This document shows, piece by piece, positions 55,466-59,133 of a stretch of DNA of 64,000 nt (positions are counted from its first letter, which is position 1; every line of letters starts with the position of its first letter). The translations under genes and the position numbers were made by a program. Origin of the DNA: Rhizomicrobium sp. (GTDB taxonomy: Bacteria > Pseudomonadota > Alphaproteobacteria > Micropepsales > Micropepsaceae); assembly GCA_037200385.1 (NCBI GenBank), contig JBBCGL010000001.1, forward strand, positions 2,619,418-2,683,417, in the 5' to 3' direction. Under the pieces are notes generated by a model. That model was not told where the DNA came from. It saw nothing but the letters and a program-made list of their open reading frames with translations, and searched no databases.

Positions 55466-56188
55466 ATGGCAGGTCTTCAGACATATTATTCCAAACGCGA
55501 TTTCGGGATCACGGCGGAGCCGCGCGGCAAGGTCGCGAAGGGCAAGGGCAAGTACCGTTTCGTCATCCAGCGCCATGCGGCGACACGGCTGCATTACGAC
55601 CTGCGGCTTGAACTGGGTGGGGTCTACAAATCATGGGCGGTGACCAAGACGCCGTCGCTCGATCCGGCGGTCAAGCGGCTGGCGGTCGAGGTCGAAGACC
55701 ACCCGATCGAATACGGCACCTTCGAAGGCACCATCCCCGAGGGCCAGTATGGCGGCGGCACGGTGCAGCTGTGGGATCGCGGGACCTGGACGCCGCAAGG
55801 CGAAGACCCGGCGAAGGAATTGCGCGGCGGACACCTGAAGATCGTGATGGACGGCGAACGGATGCAGGGCAAATGGGCCCTGATCCGGCTGCGCGACGAC
55901 GAGGCGAAGGCCGGCCGCAAGGTCCGGCACAACTGGCTGCTGATCAAGGAGGTCGACGACAAGGCCAAGCGCGGCAAGGCGGGCGAGGCGCTGGCGAAGG
56001 AAGTGACCTCGGTGAAGACCGGCCGCACCTTGGACGAGATCGCGGCAAAATCGACCAAGGTGTGGAATTCGAACCGCTCGACCGACGAGAACGTGAAGGC
56101 GCTGAAAATCAAAGCGCCCGCCAAGGCGAAGAAACCCGCCGCTAAAAAAAAGACTCGCGCGAAGACGCGCCTGACGCACCGCGGATAG
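55466..56188 (+). CDS. ligD: LigD 3'-phosphoesterase domain (5' part of a frame-split ligD)
   Basis: A 240-residue frame carrying the LigD phosphoesterase domain: DFGITAEPRG at the start, FVIQRHAATRLHYDLRLELG, WAVTKTPSLDP, VEDHPIEYGTFEGTIPEGQY and QLWDRGTW. This domain trims 3' ends before joining in bacterial NHEJ. The frame ends in a Lys/Ala linker, and the ligase domain continues in the -1 frame without a stop between. The switch point coincides with an A8 run holding A-AAA-AAG (56146-56152), so -1 frameshifting would make one protein; without it a short phosphoesterase is made. Confidence 0.9.
   Translation: MAGLQTYYSKRDFGITAEPRGKVAKGKGKYRFVIQRHAATRLHYDLRLELGGVYKSWAVTKTPSLDPAVKRLAVEVEDHPIEYGTFEGTIPEGQYGGGTVQLWDRGTWTPQGEDPAKELRGGHLKIVMDGERMQGKWALIRLRDDEAKAGRKVRHNWLLIKEVDDKAKRGKAGEALAKEVTSVKTGRTLDEIAAKSTKVWNSNRSTDENVKALKIKAPAKAKKPAAKKKTRAKTRLTHRG
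56144..56170 (+). other. Candidate -1 frameshift site: slippery A-AAA-AAG plus hairpin in ligD
   Basis: Eight A's (56144-56151) then G. In the phosphoesterase frame the codons are GCT AAA AAA AAG, so A-AAA-AAG (56146-56152) is in the exact phase used by E. coli dnaX. Four bases later GCGCG-AAGA-CGCGC (56157-56170) forms a 5-bp GC hairpin. A -1 shift enters the ligase frame with no stop before 56206. One extra A from transcriptional slippage, or a missed A in sequencing, would give the same join. Confidence 0.6.
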
Positions 56189-56205
56189 CCCGCCTGCCGG
56201 ACTTC

Positions 56206-58056
56206 GTGGCGCCGCAGCTCGCGCGCCTGATGGAGACGCCGCCGAGCGGTGCCAATTGGGTGCACGAGGTCAAGTTCGACGGCTATCGTGTCCAGATGCG
56301 GGTCGAGAAGGACCGTGCCCGGCTGCGCACCCGCAAGGGGCTCGACTGGACCGACCGCTTCCCGGAGATCGCGGCCGATGGCGGCGCCCTGCCCGATTGT
56401 ATCATCGACGGCGAGATCTGCGCCCTGAATGCGCAAGGCGCCGCGAGCTTCGGCGGATTGCAGCTCGCGCTATCGGAAGGCAAGACGGCCAAGCTGGTGT
56501 TCTTCGTGTTCGATTGTCTGTTCGCGCAAGGCCACGACCTGCGCAAGCTGGCGCTCTCGGCGCGCAAGGCGATCCTGGAGGAGATCCTCAAAGGCTCACA
56601 CGCCGGCAACCGCCTGCGCTTCGTGCCGCATTTCGCGAGCCACGGCGACGCGATGCTGGAAGCGGCGTGCAAGATGGACATGGAAGGCATCATCTCCAAG
56701 CGGCTCGATGCGCCCTATGTCTCGGGCCGCGCCGATTATTGGACCAAAAGCAAATGCCGCGGCGGGCAGGAAGTGGTGATCGGCGGCTGGCGCGGCGACG
56801 CGAGCAAGATGCGCTCGCTGCTGGTCGGCACGCACCAAGACGGCAAGCTGGTCTATATGGGCCGCGTCGGCACGGGCTACACCGCGGCTGTGGCGGCCGA
56901 CCTCCTGAAGAAACTCAAGCCGCTCAAGCGCGACAAGTCCGCCTTCGCCAATCCGCCGCGCGCACCGGACCTCAACTGGGTCGAACCGAACCTCGTCGCC
57001 GAGATCGCATACGAGAACGTCACGTCGGACGGGCTCTTCCGCCAGGCGGCGTTCAAGGGCTTGCGCGCCGACAAGCCGGCGGACAGCGTGGTACCCGAAG
57101 TGCCCGCGGACGCGCCCGCAAAGGAGAAGACAGCCATGGCCAAGAAGGTCGCGCGTGCCGCGAAGGGCGGCGACAATGTCGTGCTCGGCATCACCATCAG
57201 CCATCCGGAAAAGGAGCTGTGGCCGAAGTCCAAGCTCGGCCCGGCGGTGACCAAGCTCGACCTCGCGCGCTACATGGAAGCCGCCGCACCGCGCATGCTG
57301 CCCCATATCGCGAACCGGCCGGTCTCCATCGTGCGCACGCCGGACGGCATCACCGGCGAGACCTTCTTCCAGCGCCATGCCCTGAAGGGCACGCAGGCGG
57401 CGATGCTGGCGATCAAGGTGAGCGGCGAGCCCAATCCCTATCTCGGCGTCGACAGTCCCGAGGCGCTGGTGGCGCTGGCGCAGCAGGCGGTGACGGAGCT
57501 GCATCCCTGGGGCAGCAAGCCCGGCGATCCCGACGTGCCCGAGCGCATCATCCTCGATCTCGATCCGGCGCCGGATGTGCCGTTCGAGCGCGTCATCGAA
57601 GGGGCGCAGGAATTGCGCAGGCGGCTCGCCAGGCTCGGCTTCACGCCCTTCGTGAAGACGACGGGCGGCAAGGGGCTGCATGTGGTGATCGCGATCAAGG
57701 GCGCCGACTGGCCGCAGACCAAGGCCTTCGCCAAGGCGGTGGCGGTGCAGCTCGAGACCGACATGCCCGACCGCTACACCACGACGATGGCCAAGAACGC
57801 GCGCACGGGGAAGATTTTCATCGACTATTTGCGCAACGACCGCACCTCGACCGGCGTCGCGCCGTGGAGCACGCGGGCGCGCGAGGGTGCGCCGGTGGCG
57901 GTGCCGGTGGCGTGGAGCCAGGTGAAGAAGGGGCTCGATCCGCAGAGATTCACCATCCGCACGGTGGGGCCGCTGCTCAAGAAGGCGGATCCGTGGGCGG
58001 ACCTGGCGAAGAGCGCCAAGGCGCTGGGACCGGCGATGAAGAAGATGGGGATGTGA
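56206..58056 (+). CDS. ligD: LigD ATP-dependent ligase and polymerase domains (3' part of a frame-split ligD)
   Basis: A 616-residue frame. The ligase domain has the adenylated Lys in HEVKFDGYRVQ, then DGEICALNAQG, MEGIISKRLDAPY and the OB-fold EVVIGGWRG. The primase-polymerase domain follows (HPEKELWPKSKLGP, IILDLDPAPDVPFERVIE, VKTTGGKGLHVVIAI, RTGKIFIDYLRNDR). Together these join and fill broken DNA ends with Ku. The family sequence LPDFVAPQLA starts before GTG 56206, and no ribosome site precedes it, so independent initiation looks poor and fusion by frameshift with the upstream frame is more plausible (863 residues in total). Confidence 0.92.
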   Translation: MAPQLARLMETPPSGANWVHEVKFDGYRVQMRVEKDRARLRTRKGLDWTDRFPEIAADGGALPDCIIDGEICALNAQGAASFGGLQLALSEGKTAKLVFFVFDCLFAQGHDLRKLALSARKAILEEILKGSHAGNRLRFVPHFASHGDAMLEAACKMDMEGIISKRLDAPYVSGRADYWTKSKCRGGQEVVIGGWRGDASKMRSLLVGTHQDGKLVYMGRVGTGYTAAVAADLLKKLKPLKRDKSAFANPPRAPDLNWVEPNLVAEIAYENVTSDGLFRQAAFKGLRADKPADSVVPEVPADAPAKEKTAMAKKVARAAKGGDNVVLGITISHPEKELWPKSKLGPAVTKLDLARYMEAAAPRMLPHIANRPVSIVRTPDGITGETFFQRHALKGTQAAMLAIKVSGEPNPYLGVDSPEALVALAQQAVTELHPWGSKPGDPDVPERIILDLDPAPDVPFERVIEGAQELRRRLARLGFTPFVKTTGGKGLHVVIAIKGADWPQTKAFAKAVAVQLETDMPDRYTTTMAKNARTGKIFIDYLRNDRTSTGVAPWSTRAREGAPVAVPVAWSQVKKGLDPQRFTIRTVGPLLKKADPWADLAKSAKALGPAMKKMGM

Positions 58057-58133: not shown

Positions 58134-59039
58134 TTATCGGTGCGCGCGCTTCTTGGCGTTGCTGTTGGCCGGGGTCTTGGCGGGGGCCGCGCCGCTTTTG
58201 CCTTTCAGGCTCTTCTTCAAGGCTTCCATCAGGTCGATCACGTTGGTGTCCTCCACCGGTTCGGCCTTGACGGGCTTCTCGCCCTTTTCCTTGCGCTTGA
58301 TCAGCTCTTTGAGCGCCTTCTCGTAGCGGTCCTCGAACATGCTGGGATCAAAGTCGCCTTCCTGCTGCTCGATGATCTTTTGCGCGATCTCCACCATCTT
58401 CTTGTCGGAGCGGCTGGCCGGGATATCCTCGAAGGCCTTCTTCGGATCGAGCACCTCCTCGGCGCTGCGCAGCGTGTAGGCGACGATGCCCTTGTCGCGC
58501 GGCTCCAGCGCCACCATGCGCTCGCGGGTGTGCATCACGACGCGGCCGATGGCGATGCGGCCCGCCTGCTCGAGCGCGTCGCGGATCACCACGAAGGCTT
58601 CGGTGCCGCTCTTGCCGTCGGGCACCAGGAAATACGGGTCGTTCCAGTAGAGCCGGTCGATCTCGTTCGCATCCACGAAGCGCTCGATATCGATGGTGCG
58701 CGTGGTCTCCAGCCGCACCTCCTGCAGCTCTTCGTTGGTCACGATGATGTATTTGTTCTTCTCGACCTCGTAGCCCTTCACGAGGTCCTTGCGCTCGACC
58801 GGGCCGGTGTCGGGATCGGTCGGGATCATGCGGATGCGGTTGTTGGTCTCGGGATTGAGCATATGGAACGAGATGTCGGAGGCGCGCGTCGTGGCGCCGT
58901 AGAGCGCGACCGGGCAGCTCACCAGCGACAGCCGCAGATGGCCTTGCCAGGCGGGACGGCCGCCGCGCCGGGCGCCGGTGGCATGGGCGGGCGCCTCGTG
59001 CCTCTTGGCGGGAGAACGGGCTTTTTTGCGCGCGGCCAT
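58134..59039 (-). CDS. ku: NHEJ DNA-end-binding protein Ku
   Basis: A 302-residue Ku homologue. Blocks WQGHLRLSLVSCPVALYGAT at the start, VVMHTRERMVALEPRDKGIV in the middle and the C-terminal Lys-rich tail (KGKSGAAPAKTPANSNAKKR) are typical. It forms a ring on broken DNA ends and recruits LigD, whose gene is convergent next door. ATG 59039 is the family-like start; a 10-residue extension to 59069 is possible. Confidence 0.96.
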   Translation of the reverse strand: MAARKKARSPAKRHEAPAHATGARRGGRPAWQGHLRLSLVSCPVALYGATTRASDISFHMLNPETNNRIRMIPTDPDTGPVERKDLVKGYEVEKNKYIIVTNEELQEVRLETTRTIDIERFVDANEIDRLYWNDPYFLVPDGKSGTEAFVVIRDALEQAGRIAIGRVVMHTRERMVALEPRDKGIVAYTLRSAEEVLDPKKAFEDIPASRSDKKMVEIAQKIIEQQEGDFDPSMFEDRYEKALKELIKRKEKGEKPVKAEPVEDTNVIDLMEALKKSLKGKSGAAPAKTPANSNAKKRAHR

Positions 59040-59133
59040 GGGGATTTTTCCAGCGGATCCGGGACTCAACGCCCCGGAACCCGATTGTATCCGAAAGCCG
59101 TTCGACCCTCACGCGCCGCGAGGGCCGAGATGT

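What the first reader, a model, noticed from the sequence alone, without database searches (positions are those of the whole stretch)
55466..58056. ligD split at a dnaX-type slippery site: probable programmed -1 frameshift
Seen: the phosphoesterase frame and the ligase-polymerase frame are in -1 relation. The switch lies at A8-G (56144-56152), with A-AAA-AAG in the correct phase. A 5-bp GC hairpin follows four bases downstream. The -1 frame is open from 56152, before the ligase domain's conserved start LPDFVAPQLA, and no ribosome site serves that domain. Known: A-AAA-AAG with a downstream hairpin drives about half of the frameshifting in E. coli dnaX. Inferred: two products, a short phosphoesterase (240 residues) and a full LigD (863 residues), may be made in a set ratio. 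I do not know of a described case in ligD.
Basis: partly seen in the sequence, partly recalled or inferred. Interest (0 to 1): 0.88.

Follow-up and report, generated by a model that had tools for sequence, protein, structure and literature searches.

The report
Split LigD gene bridged by slippage
In one group of alphaproteobacteria the gene for a DNA-break repair enzyme is cut in two by a reading-frame break, usually at a run of eight or nine A's, and the break has been kept over long evolution, so the cell probably slips there on purpose to make both a short and a full-length enzyme.

Summary
In detail: A8-G at 56144-56152, in phase, links a 240-codon LigD phosphoesterase (PE) frame to a ligase-polymerase frame in the -1 relation. 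It is very unlikely to be a sequencing error or a lone mutation. In a well-supported LigD clade of 18 genes, 16 have the same -1 break at the PE/ligase junction. Thirteen of those 16 carry a run of 8 or 9 A's there, against 3 of 93 uninterrupted ligD genes. Exact A9 runs are rare: in two relatives the ligD run is the only one in the held assembly. The clade's three split members without a run all have an ATGA or GTGA stop/start overlap; a fourth runless member is back in one frame. I conclude that slippage is programmed and yields PE alone plus full LigD. The 'dnaX-type ribosomal' label is weaker: the hairpin is no better than chance, the heptamer varies, every run exceeds six A's, and a tRNA-Lys(CUU) gene is present. 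RNA-polymerase slippage (as in Thermus dnaX) fits somewhat better, although the constant -1 direction favours the ribosome. I had no expression data. I found no ligD case in the papers searched.

The parts
55466..56188 (+). LigD 3'-phosphoesterase (PE) reading frame, 240 aa, zero frame, ends TAG after a Lys/Arg-rich tail
   Evidence: TIGR02777 211 bits and PF13298 147.9 bits
56144..56152 (+). slippage site A8-G, read AAA AAA AAG in the PE frame
   Evidence: A8 in G028 and G029, A9 in ten further split relatives
56143..56145 (+). TAA that closes the ligase frame at the start of the A run; the two frames overlap only from 56146 to 56185
   Evidence: overlap 40 nt, closing stop TAA, run starts 2 nt before the opening
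56146..58056 (+). ligase-polymerase frame, -1 relative to PE; no ATG/GTG/TTG before the GTG at 56206
   Evidence: TIGR02776 661.5 bits, TIGR02779, TIGR02778
56157..56170 (+).
   Evidence: predicted, z 0.13; no like hairpin at that place in G028, G029, G011, G023
56186..56188 (+). TAG stop of the PE-only product; overlaps an ATA of the ligase frame (GTGA in G028, G029, G068; ATGA in G080, G072, G034; TTGA in G074, G454)
58134..59069 (-). Ku gene, convergent neighbour, partner of LigD in end joining
   Evidence: TIGR02772 291.9 bits, PF02735

Best explanation
ligD here is one gene in two overlapping frames. Without a frame change it gives the 240-aa PE protein. A fraction of mRNA or ribosomes changes frame at the A8 run and gives the 863-aa PE-ligase-polymerase enzyme (LigD). 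The frame change is programmed, that is, maintained by selection. The step is most probably RNA-polymerase slippage that adds one A to the mRNA, with -1 ribosomal slippage at the same run as a close alternative or an addition. Shown: the break, its conservation across a deep clade, that run-less members have another route to the ligase, and purifying selection on both halves. Inferred: that the fusion protein is made, the ratio of products, and which machine slips (I put about 55:45 on RNA polymerase over ribosome).
For: Same -1 break with A8 in G028 and G029 (82 and 81% identical) and with A9 in G080, G011, G023, G457, G454, G455, G074, G075, G082 and Umea3_bin-2224. Of 110 distinct PE-ligase junctions, 13 of 16 split genes and 3 of 93 uninterrupted genes have A8 or longer; Fisher p 1.2e-11, not corrected for kinship. 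In all 13 the ligase frame is open across the run and one extra A would join the frames. Tree: one clade at SH-aLRT 100 holds the 16 split genes plus G010 and G002; the label 'split' (there also on G033, outside this clade) needs 3 changes against 14.7 in shuffles. Inside the clade the run is missing only where another route exists: in-frame GTGA/ATGA at the PE stop in 3 of 3 runless split genes (G068, G072, G034), or one uninterrupted frame (G010). Exact A9 is rare: the held assemblies of G023 and G080 have one each, G011 three and G074 four; in all four one of them is the ligD run. No ATG/GTG/TTG lies between run and ligase motif in 5 of 13 (G000, G011, G023, G075, Umea3). The frames overlap by 16-19 nt in G075, G074, G082, where the run fills much of it. 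dN well below dS in both halves (G000/G028: PE 0.086/0.471, ligase-polymerase 0.133/0.449). For RNA polymerase: all 13 runs are 8-9 long although a ribosomal heptamer needs six A's; the in-phase heptamer ends AAG in 7, AAC in 3, AAA in 3; tRNA-Lys(CUU) was found in G000, G028, G029, G068, G080, G023, G457 and G074, as two lysine tRNAs exist in Thermus, which uses RNA-polymerase slippage at nine A's in dnaX (passages of PMC5009743).
Against: No RNA or protein data. Eight of 13 run-bearing genes also have a standard start codon between run and motif, so re-initiation could make a separate ligase-polymerase there; rare starts (ATA, CTG) were not weighed. Every run-bearing split gene is in the -1 direction, which the GeneTack authors take as a sign of ribosomal rather than RNA-polymerase slippage (PMC3711429 section 10). 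Lys-rich linkers make A runs fairly likely: P(run as long as observed, given amino acids) ranges 0.003 to 0.41 per gene. Basicness of the PE tail gives no independent support (P 0.15). G000, G028 and G029 have 1-3 contigs, so possibly long-read assemblies, where one A can be dropped from A9; G028 does show seven exact A9 runs elsewhere. The independent-pairs test had too few pairs. G010 has no break, and G033 (outside the clade) is broken without a run.
Confidence: 0.8

Rival explanations
1. Same two products, but the step is -1 ribosomal slippage on A_AAA_AAG as in E. coli dnaX (the first reader's mechanism; it shares the 'programmed' part of the best explanation).
For: A_AAA_AAN is in phase in all 13 and A_AAA_AAG in 7 of 13; direction is always -1, which PMC3711429 section 10 reads as ribosomal.
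Against: Hairpin not better than shuffles in the window and not at that place in the four relatives folded; tRNA-Lys(CUU) present in 8 of 13 genomes looked at, the other five undecided; six of 13 have AAC or AAA, which are much less shifty than AAG in E. coli (PMC5009743 passage); every run is 8-9 long where six would do.
Confidence: 0.38
2. No frame change: PE and ligase-polymerase are separate proteins, the second started by coupled re-initiation near the PE stop.
For: ATGA or GTGA overlaps in G068, G072, G034, G080, G028, G029; domains in separate proteins are known in other bacteria (PMC7719229 passages); G355, far away, is split with an ATG of the ligase frame 5 nt before the PE stop.
Against: G000, G011, G023, G075 and Umea3 have no ATG/GTG/TTG between run and ligase motif. 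It leaves the A8/A9 unexplained in 13 of 16. The three runless split genes of the clade all have the overlap, so it looks like an alternative to the run.
Confidence: 0.1
3. Sequencing or assembly error: the true run is A9 here and the gene is uninterrupted.
For: G000, G028 and G029 are 1-3 contig assemblies and might be long-read; homopolymers are their usual fault (recalled).
Against: The break is shared by 16 genes with different run lengths, including G068, G072 and G034, which have no run to miscall. G028 contains seven exact A9 runs and G000 one.
Confidence: 0.04
4. Phase-variable tract: the DNA run changes length and switches full LigD on and off.
For: Homopolymer in a coding region at a domain border.
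Against: All 13 run-bearing split genes are in the same out-of-frame state; a random switch would show in-frame copies. Within the clade G002, in frame with A8, is the only possible one.
Confidence: 0.04
5. A decaying gene broken by a chance frameshift.
For: One indel at a homopolymer would look like this in a single genome.
Against: dN well below dS on both sides of the break in the seven pairs tested; break shared across a clade; PE DHP and ligase KFDG found in 15 of 15 genes checked, FDLDP in 13 and the PE pattern HYD[LF]R[LI]E in 11.
Confidence: 0.02

Closest known systems
Two-ORF dnaX genes of Chlorobium and others (GeneTack; PMC3711429, passages seen)
   Same: A gene in two ORFs with a -1 relation at a poly-A tract (10, 8 or 7 A's), frame change needed for the longer product.
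   Different: DNA polymerase III subunit, not an NHEJ ligase; ligD has 0 occurrences in the main text of that paper; its supplementary cluster tables were not seen.
Thermus thermophilus dnaX (RNA-polymerase slippage at nine A's; PMC5009743 passages)
   Same: Run of nine, two lysine tRNAs in the host, two products from one gene.
   Different: There the long product is the unshifted one; here the short PE is.
E. coli dnaX (-1 ribosomal shift at A_AAA_AAG; PMC3711429 and PMC5009743 passages)
   Same: Same heptamer in the window gene.
   Different: Opposite topology, no significant hairpin here, tRNA-Lys(CUU) present here, runs of 8-9.
Ordinary alphaproteobacterial LigD (PE-ligase-polymerase in one frame)
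   Same: Same domains in the same order; Ku lies beside it in the window.
   Different: 93 of 110 junctions examined are uninterrupted; 16 of the 18 genes of this clade are split.

Membership tests
LigD of bacterial NHEJ | PE, ATP ligase and primase-polymerase domains, with Ku in the genome | tested here: met
   TIGR02777, TIGR02776, TIGR02778, TIGR02779, TIGR02772 over cut-off
LigD of bacterial NHEJ | one uninterrupted reading frame | tested here: not met
   frames in -1 relation; 16 of 18 genes of the clade are split
Programmed frame change (any mechanism) | shift site and frame break conserved among diverged orthologs | tested here: met
   13 of 16 split genes with A8/A9 at the junction, all -1
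Programmed frame change (any mechanism) | trans-frame product detected | not testable with these tools
   no expression data
dnaX-type -1 ribosomal frameshift | A_AAA_AAG in phase | tested here: met
   for the window; 7 of 13 run-bearing genes incl. the window
dnaX-type -1 ribosomal frameshift | conserved downstream stem-loop | tested here: not met
   z 0.13 in the window; structures differ in the four relatives folded
dnaX-type -1 ribosomal frameshift | upstream Shine-Dalgarno-like stimulator | not tested
   only start-codon SD scores were computed
dnaX-type -1 ribosomal frameshift | sole tRNA-Lys (UUU) in the host | tested here: not met
   tRNA-Lys ctt and ttt both in G000
Programmed transcriptional realignment | run of about 8 or more A or T, kept in length | tested here: met
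   A8 in 3 and A9 in 10 of the 13
Programmed transcriptional realignment | both shift directions among orthologs | tested here: not met
   all 13 are -1; criterion from PMC3711429 section 10
Programmed transcriptional realignment | mRNA heterogeneous in run length | not testable with these tools
   no RNA data
Translationally coupled gene pair | standard start codon at or just after the upstream stop | tested here: not met
   window: ATA at the stop, first standard start is GTG 56206 inside the motif; met in G068, G072, G034

The most novel reading that the evidence does not exclude
A clade of Alphaproteobacteria sets the ratio of free PE end-processing protein to complete LigD by slippage at an A8/A9 run that selection keeps out of frame. 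Some members have replaced slippage by coupled re-initiation and one by a single frame. Because slippage by RNA polymerase on A runs could depend on ATP supply, and LigD ligates with ATP and fills with NTPs (recalled), the switch might tie NHEJ capacity to the energy state of the cell.
Probability: 0.15. Interest if true: 0.88.

Novelty: new member of a known kind. Interest (0 to 1): 0.72.

Why it matters
If the fusion is made, this is a new gene family for programmed frame change in bacteria, in a DNA double-strand-break repair enzyme. It would mean that end processing (PE) and ligation are made in a set ratio. The clade also shows, in one gene, slippage, probable coupled re-initiation and a single frame as interchangeable solutions, which makes it a natural experiment on how programmed frame changes arise and vanish. 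Automatic annotation is likely to call such genes broken or to call two genes (inference), so cases like this are easily missed.

Tried and rejected
Hairpin as stimulator: rejected (window and four relatives folded). PE-tail basicness as evidence for selection on the short product: the 0-frame tails have no acidic residue in all 13, but recoding the -1 peptide synonymously gives nearly the same (62 K/R against 57.8 expected, P 0.146); rejected. Openness of the ligase frame given the PE tail: P 0.53-0.97 per gene, weak. SD strength as a test of internal initiation: not decisive. GC3 frame call at all A8 sites of the genome: noisy, not used. The tool's open_frame_aa as a measure of intactness: misleading; G080 shows 853, yet its PE frame stops at the junction and is open far upstream. 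The first orientation-blind pass was wrong for minus-strand loci and was redone. In one search the list 'to motif+12aa' was in the wrong frame; replace it. In one search the label 'fused' counted G033 as intact; one search corrects it. The tRNA-Lys(CUU) search by DNA likeness gave a match in G074 that was not among the loci scanned; a tRNA family search then showed the gene, so the lack of a scanned CUU gene in G011, G075, G082, G454 and G455 says nothing; the last 13 of G074's 43 tRNA matches were fetched but not scanned.

Rows dropped before the count of 110: loci without both PE and ligase matches starting within the first 12 query residues on one strand 300-1100 nt apart, and duplicates by the first 300 nt of PE. 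So G022 and G035 (PE beside polymerase, ligase elsewhere) and G083 (truncated PE) are not in it. Fifteen more PE regions with open frames of 175-586 residues (14, one) were fetched and examined with four earlier loci: none showed an A8+ split.

Literature: searches (ligD + 'programmed ribosomal frameshifting': 0; 17 listed; ligD + frameshift: 30 listed; listing and abstract starts only, of these none opened; 29 held, 20 listed; 5 held, 4 listed, unrelated by title). Passages read: PMC3711429 (and section 10), PMC5009743 (first 300,000 of 475,107 characters held; 0 for ligD and ligase), PMC1088944, PMC7719229; PMC8656161 was searched for split/separate/frameshift and the like, 0 found. Supplementary files were not open to me. 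The library lacks most subscription papers.
Full report
What is there. The window gene is ligD of a bacterium with a 5.0-Mb single-contig genome whose LigD relatives are mostly Alphaproteobacteria. PE is read from 55466 to a TAG at 56186-56188. The ligase-polymerase frame is -1 to it, opens at 56146 after a TAA that overlaps the start of the A run, and ends at 58056. Eight A's and a G (56144-56152) are read AAA AAA AAG in the PE frame. The LigD domains and the neighbouring Ku gene score above curated cut-offs. The overlap of the two frames is only 40 nt, and the run lies at its start, so a change of frame must happen at or just after the run.

Relatives. Sixteen are split, all with the ligase in the -1 frame; 93 are in one frame; one (G033) is broken without a run and lies outside the clade. 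The split genes are G000 (window), G028, G029, G068, G080, G072, G034, G011, G023, G457, G454, G455, G074, G075, G082 and the MAG Umea3_bin-2224 (CAIKMD010000007.1). Named matches, by equal contig length: G068 is JADHVO010000002.1, G072 JAFECP010000008.1, G034 JAFECN010000058.1, G075 JAFAVP010000076.1, G074 JAFAWQ010000048.1, G455 JAGWSK010000411.1 (for G455 the contig length is that and of the region held). A8 is in G000, G028, G029; A9 in the other ten run-bearing genes. G068, G072, G034 have no run. Uninterrupted genes with A8 or longer are 3 of 93 (G002, Bradyrhizobium diazoefficiens SZCCT0138, G084). Fisher p is 1.2e-11 but kin are counted separately.

Tree. On PE plus ligase domains, linker left out, the 16 split genes form with G010 and G002 a clade of 18 with SH-aLRT 100 (quick method; 56 of the 110 rows, chosen by PE identity 58.5% or more plus the named ones). 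Ligase identity to the window gene falls to about 56% in the clade, so the break is probably old. The run was probably lost in G068, in the pair G072/G034 (their sister G080 has A9) and in G010. The first three genes have an in-frame GTGA or ATGA at the PE stop, and G010 is in one frame. The tree needs three changes of 'split' (G033 included). An independent-pairs test has too few pairs to decide.

Is the run selected? Given amino acids and own codon use, a run as long as observed has probability 0.033-0.059 in G000, G028, G029; 0.18 G080; 0.003 G011; 0.043 Umea3; 0.41 G457; 0.029 G023; 0.033-0.28 in G075, G074, G082; 0.016 and 0.004 in G454, G455. Taking the largest value of each of seven subclades, the product is about 2e-8 (my arithmetic). 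It treats subclades as independent, which they are not. Exact A9 runs number 1, 7, 2, 3, 4, 1, 1, 3, 0 in the held assemblies of G000, G028, G029, G068, G074, G023, G080, G011, G002 (G080 and G011 are 81 and 75% complete), against 16-29 exact A8 runs each. In the four of these nine that have a ligD A9, it is 4 of 9 A9 runs, and the only one in G023 and G080. One more A would put any of the 13 genes in one frame; none has it.

Function of both halves. dN is well below dS on both sides of the break in the seven pairs tested. By pattern, PE 'DHP' and ligase 'KFDG' were found in 15 of 15 genes checked (14 of the 16 split ones plus G033), FDLDP in 13 and HYD[LF]R[LI]E in 11. In the window the Pol motif reads LDLDP; the other misses were not looked into.

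Which machine? For RNA polymerase: length always 8-9; the in-phase heptamer varies (AAG 7, AAC 3, AAA 3); tRNA-Lys(CUU) in G000, G028, G029, G068, G457, G080, G023 and G074, undecided in G011, G075, G082, G454, G455 and not looked for in Umea3. PMC5009743 (passages) links two lysine tRNAs in Thermus to its use of RNA-polymerase slippage at a run of nine, and says A_AAA_AAG is much shiftier than AAC or AAA in E. coli. For the ribosome: constant -1 direction, which PMC3711429 takes as its mark. An insertion bias of RNA polymerase plus shared ancestry could also give it. PMC1088944 (passages) suggests that slippage on eight A's is productive in IS elements of Deinococcus and Nostoc.

Separate proteins? 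In G000, G011, G023, G075 and Umea3 no ATG, GTG or TTG lies between run and ligase motif. In the other eight run-bearing genes there is one, so re-initiation may contribute there. SD strength does not separate the cases.

G002 is a mirror: one frame, A8 in phase. A -1 slip there would add about 70 residues and stop, which would also give PE alone beside full LigD, in the topology of E. coli dnaX. Its run has probability 0.20 by chance, so I do not lean on it.

Novelty. In the papers searched I found no ligD case (supplements and most subscription papers not seen). The kind of thing (a gene in two ORFs joined by slippage at a poly-A run) is known; the gene family and the clade-wide swap between slippage, re-initiation and a single frame appear new.

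Noticed in passing
L075 (G002), run 1506-1513: A8-G in phase inside an uninterrupted ligD; -1 slip would give a PE with about 70 further residues (dnaX-like topology).
   Followed up: partly
L071 (G022) and L076 (G035): PE lies beside the polymerase domain, with the ligase found elsewhere in the genome; in G022 the PE stop overlaps an ATG (ATGA).
   Followed up: partly
L077 (G033), 1654-1718 on the reversed locus: PE and ligase in different frames without any A6+ run, outside the clade; a possible plain frameshift or assembly error.
   Followed up: no
L276 (G355): Distant alphaproteobacterium with PE and ligase split and an ATG of the ligase frame 5 nt before the PE stop, after AGGAAAAAA: an independent, probably coupled split.
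   Followed up: partly
L281 (G270) and L282 (G209): PE frames with a single in-frame stop (TAA, TAG) in the conserved stretch that reads EGQYGGGTVQLWDRG in the window; decay or sequence error.
   Followed up: no
G000:C1:4311426-4311434 (L105): The only A9 run of the window's genome, context CGC A9 GGC; gene not identified.
   Followed up: no
window 56143, and G028, G029, G074, G075, G082: In all six genes with the run in codon phase 0 a T precedes it, so a TAA in the ligase frame closes that frame at the run.
   Followed up: partly
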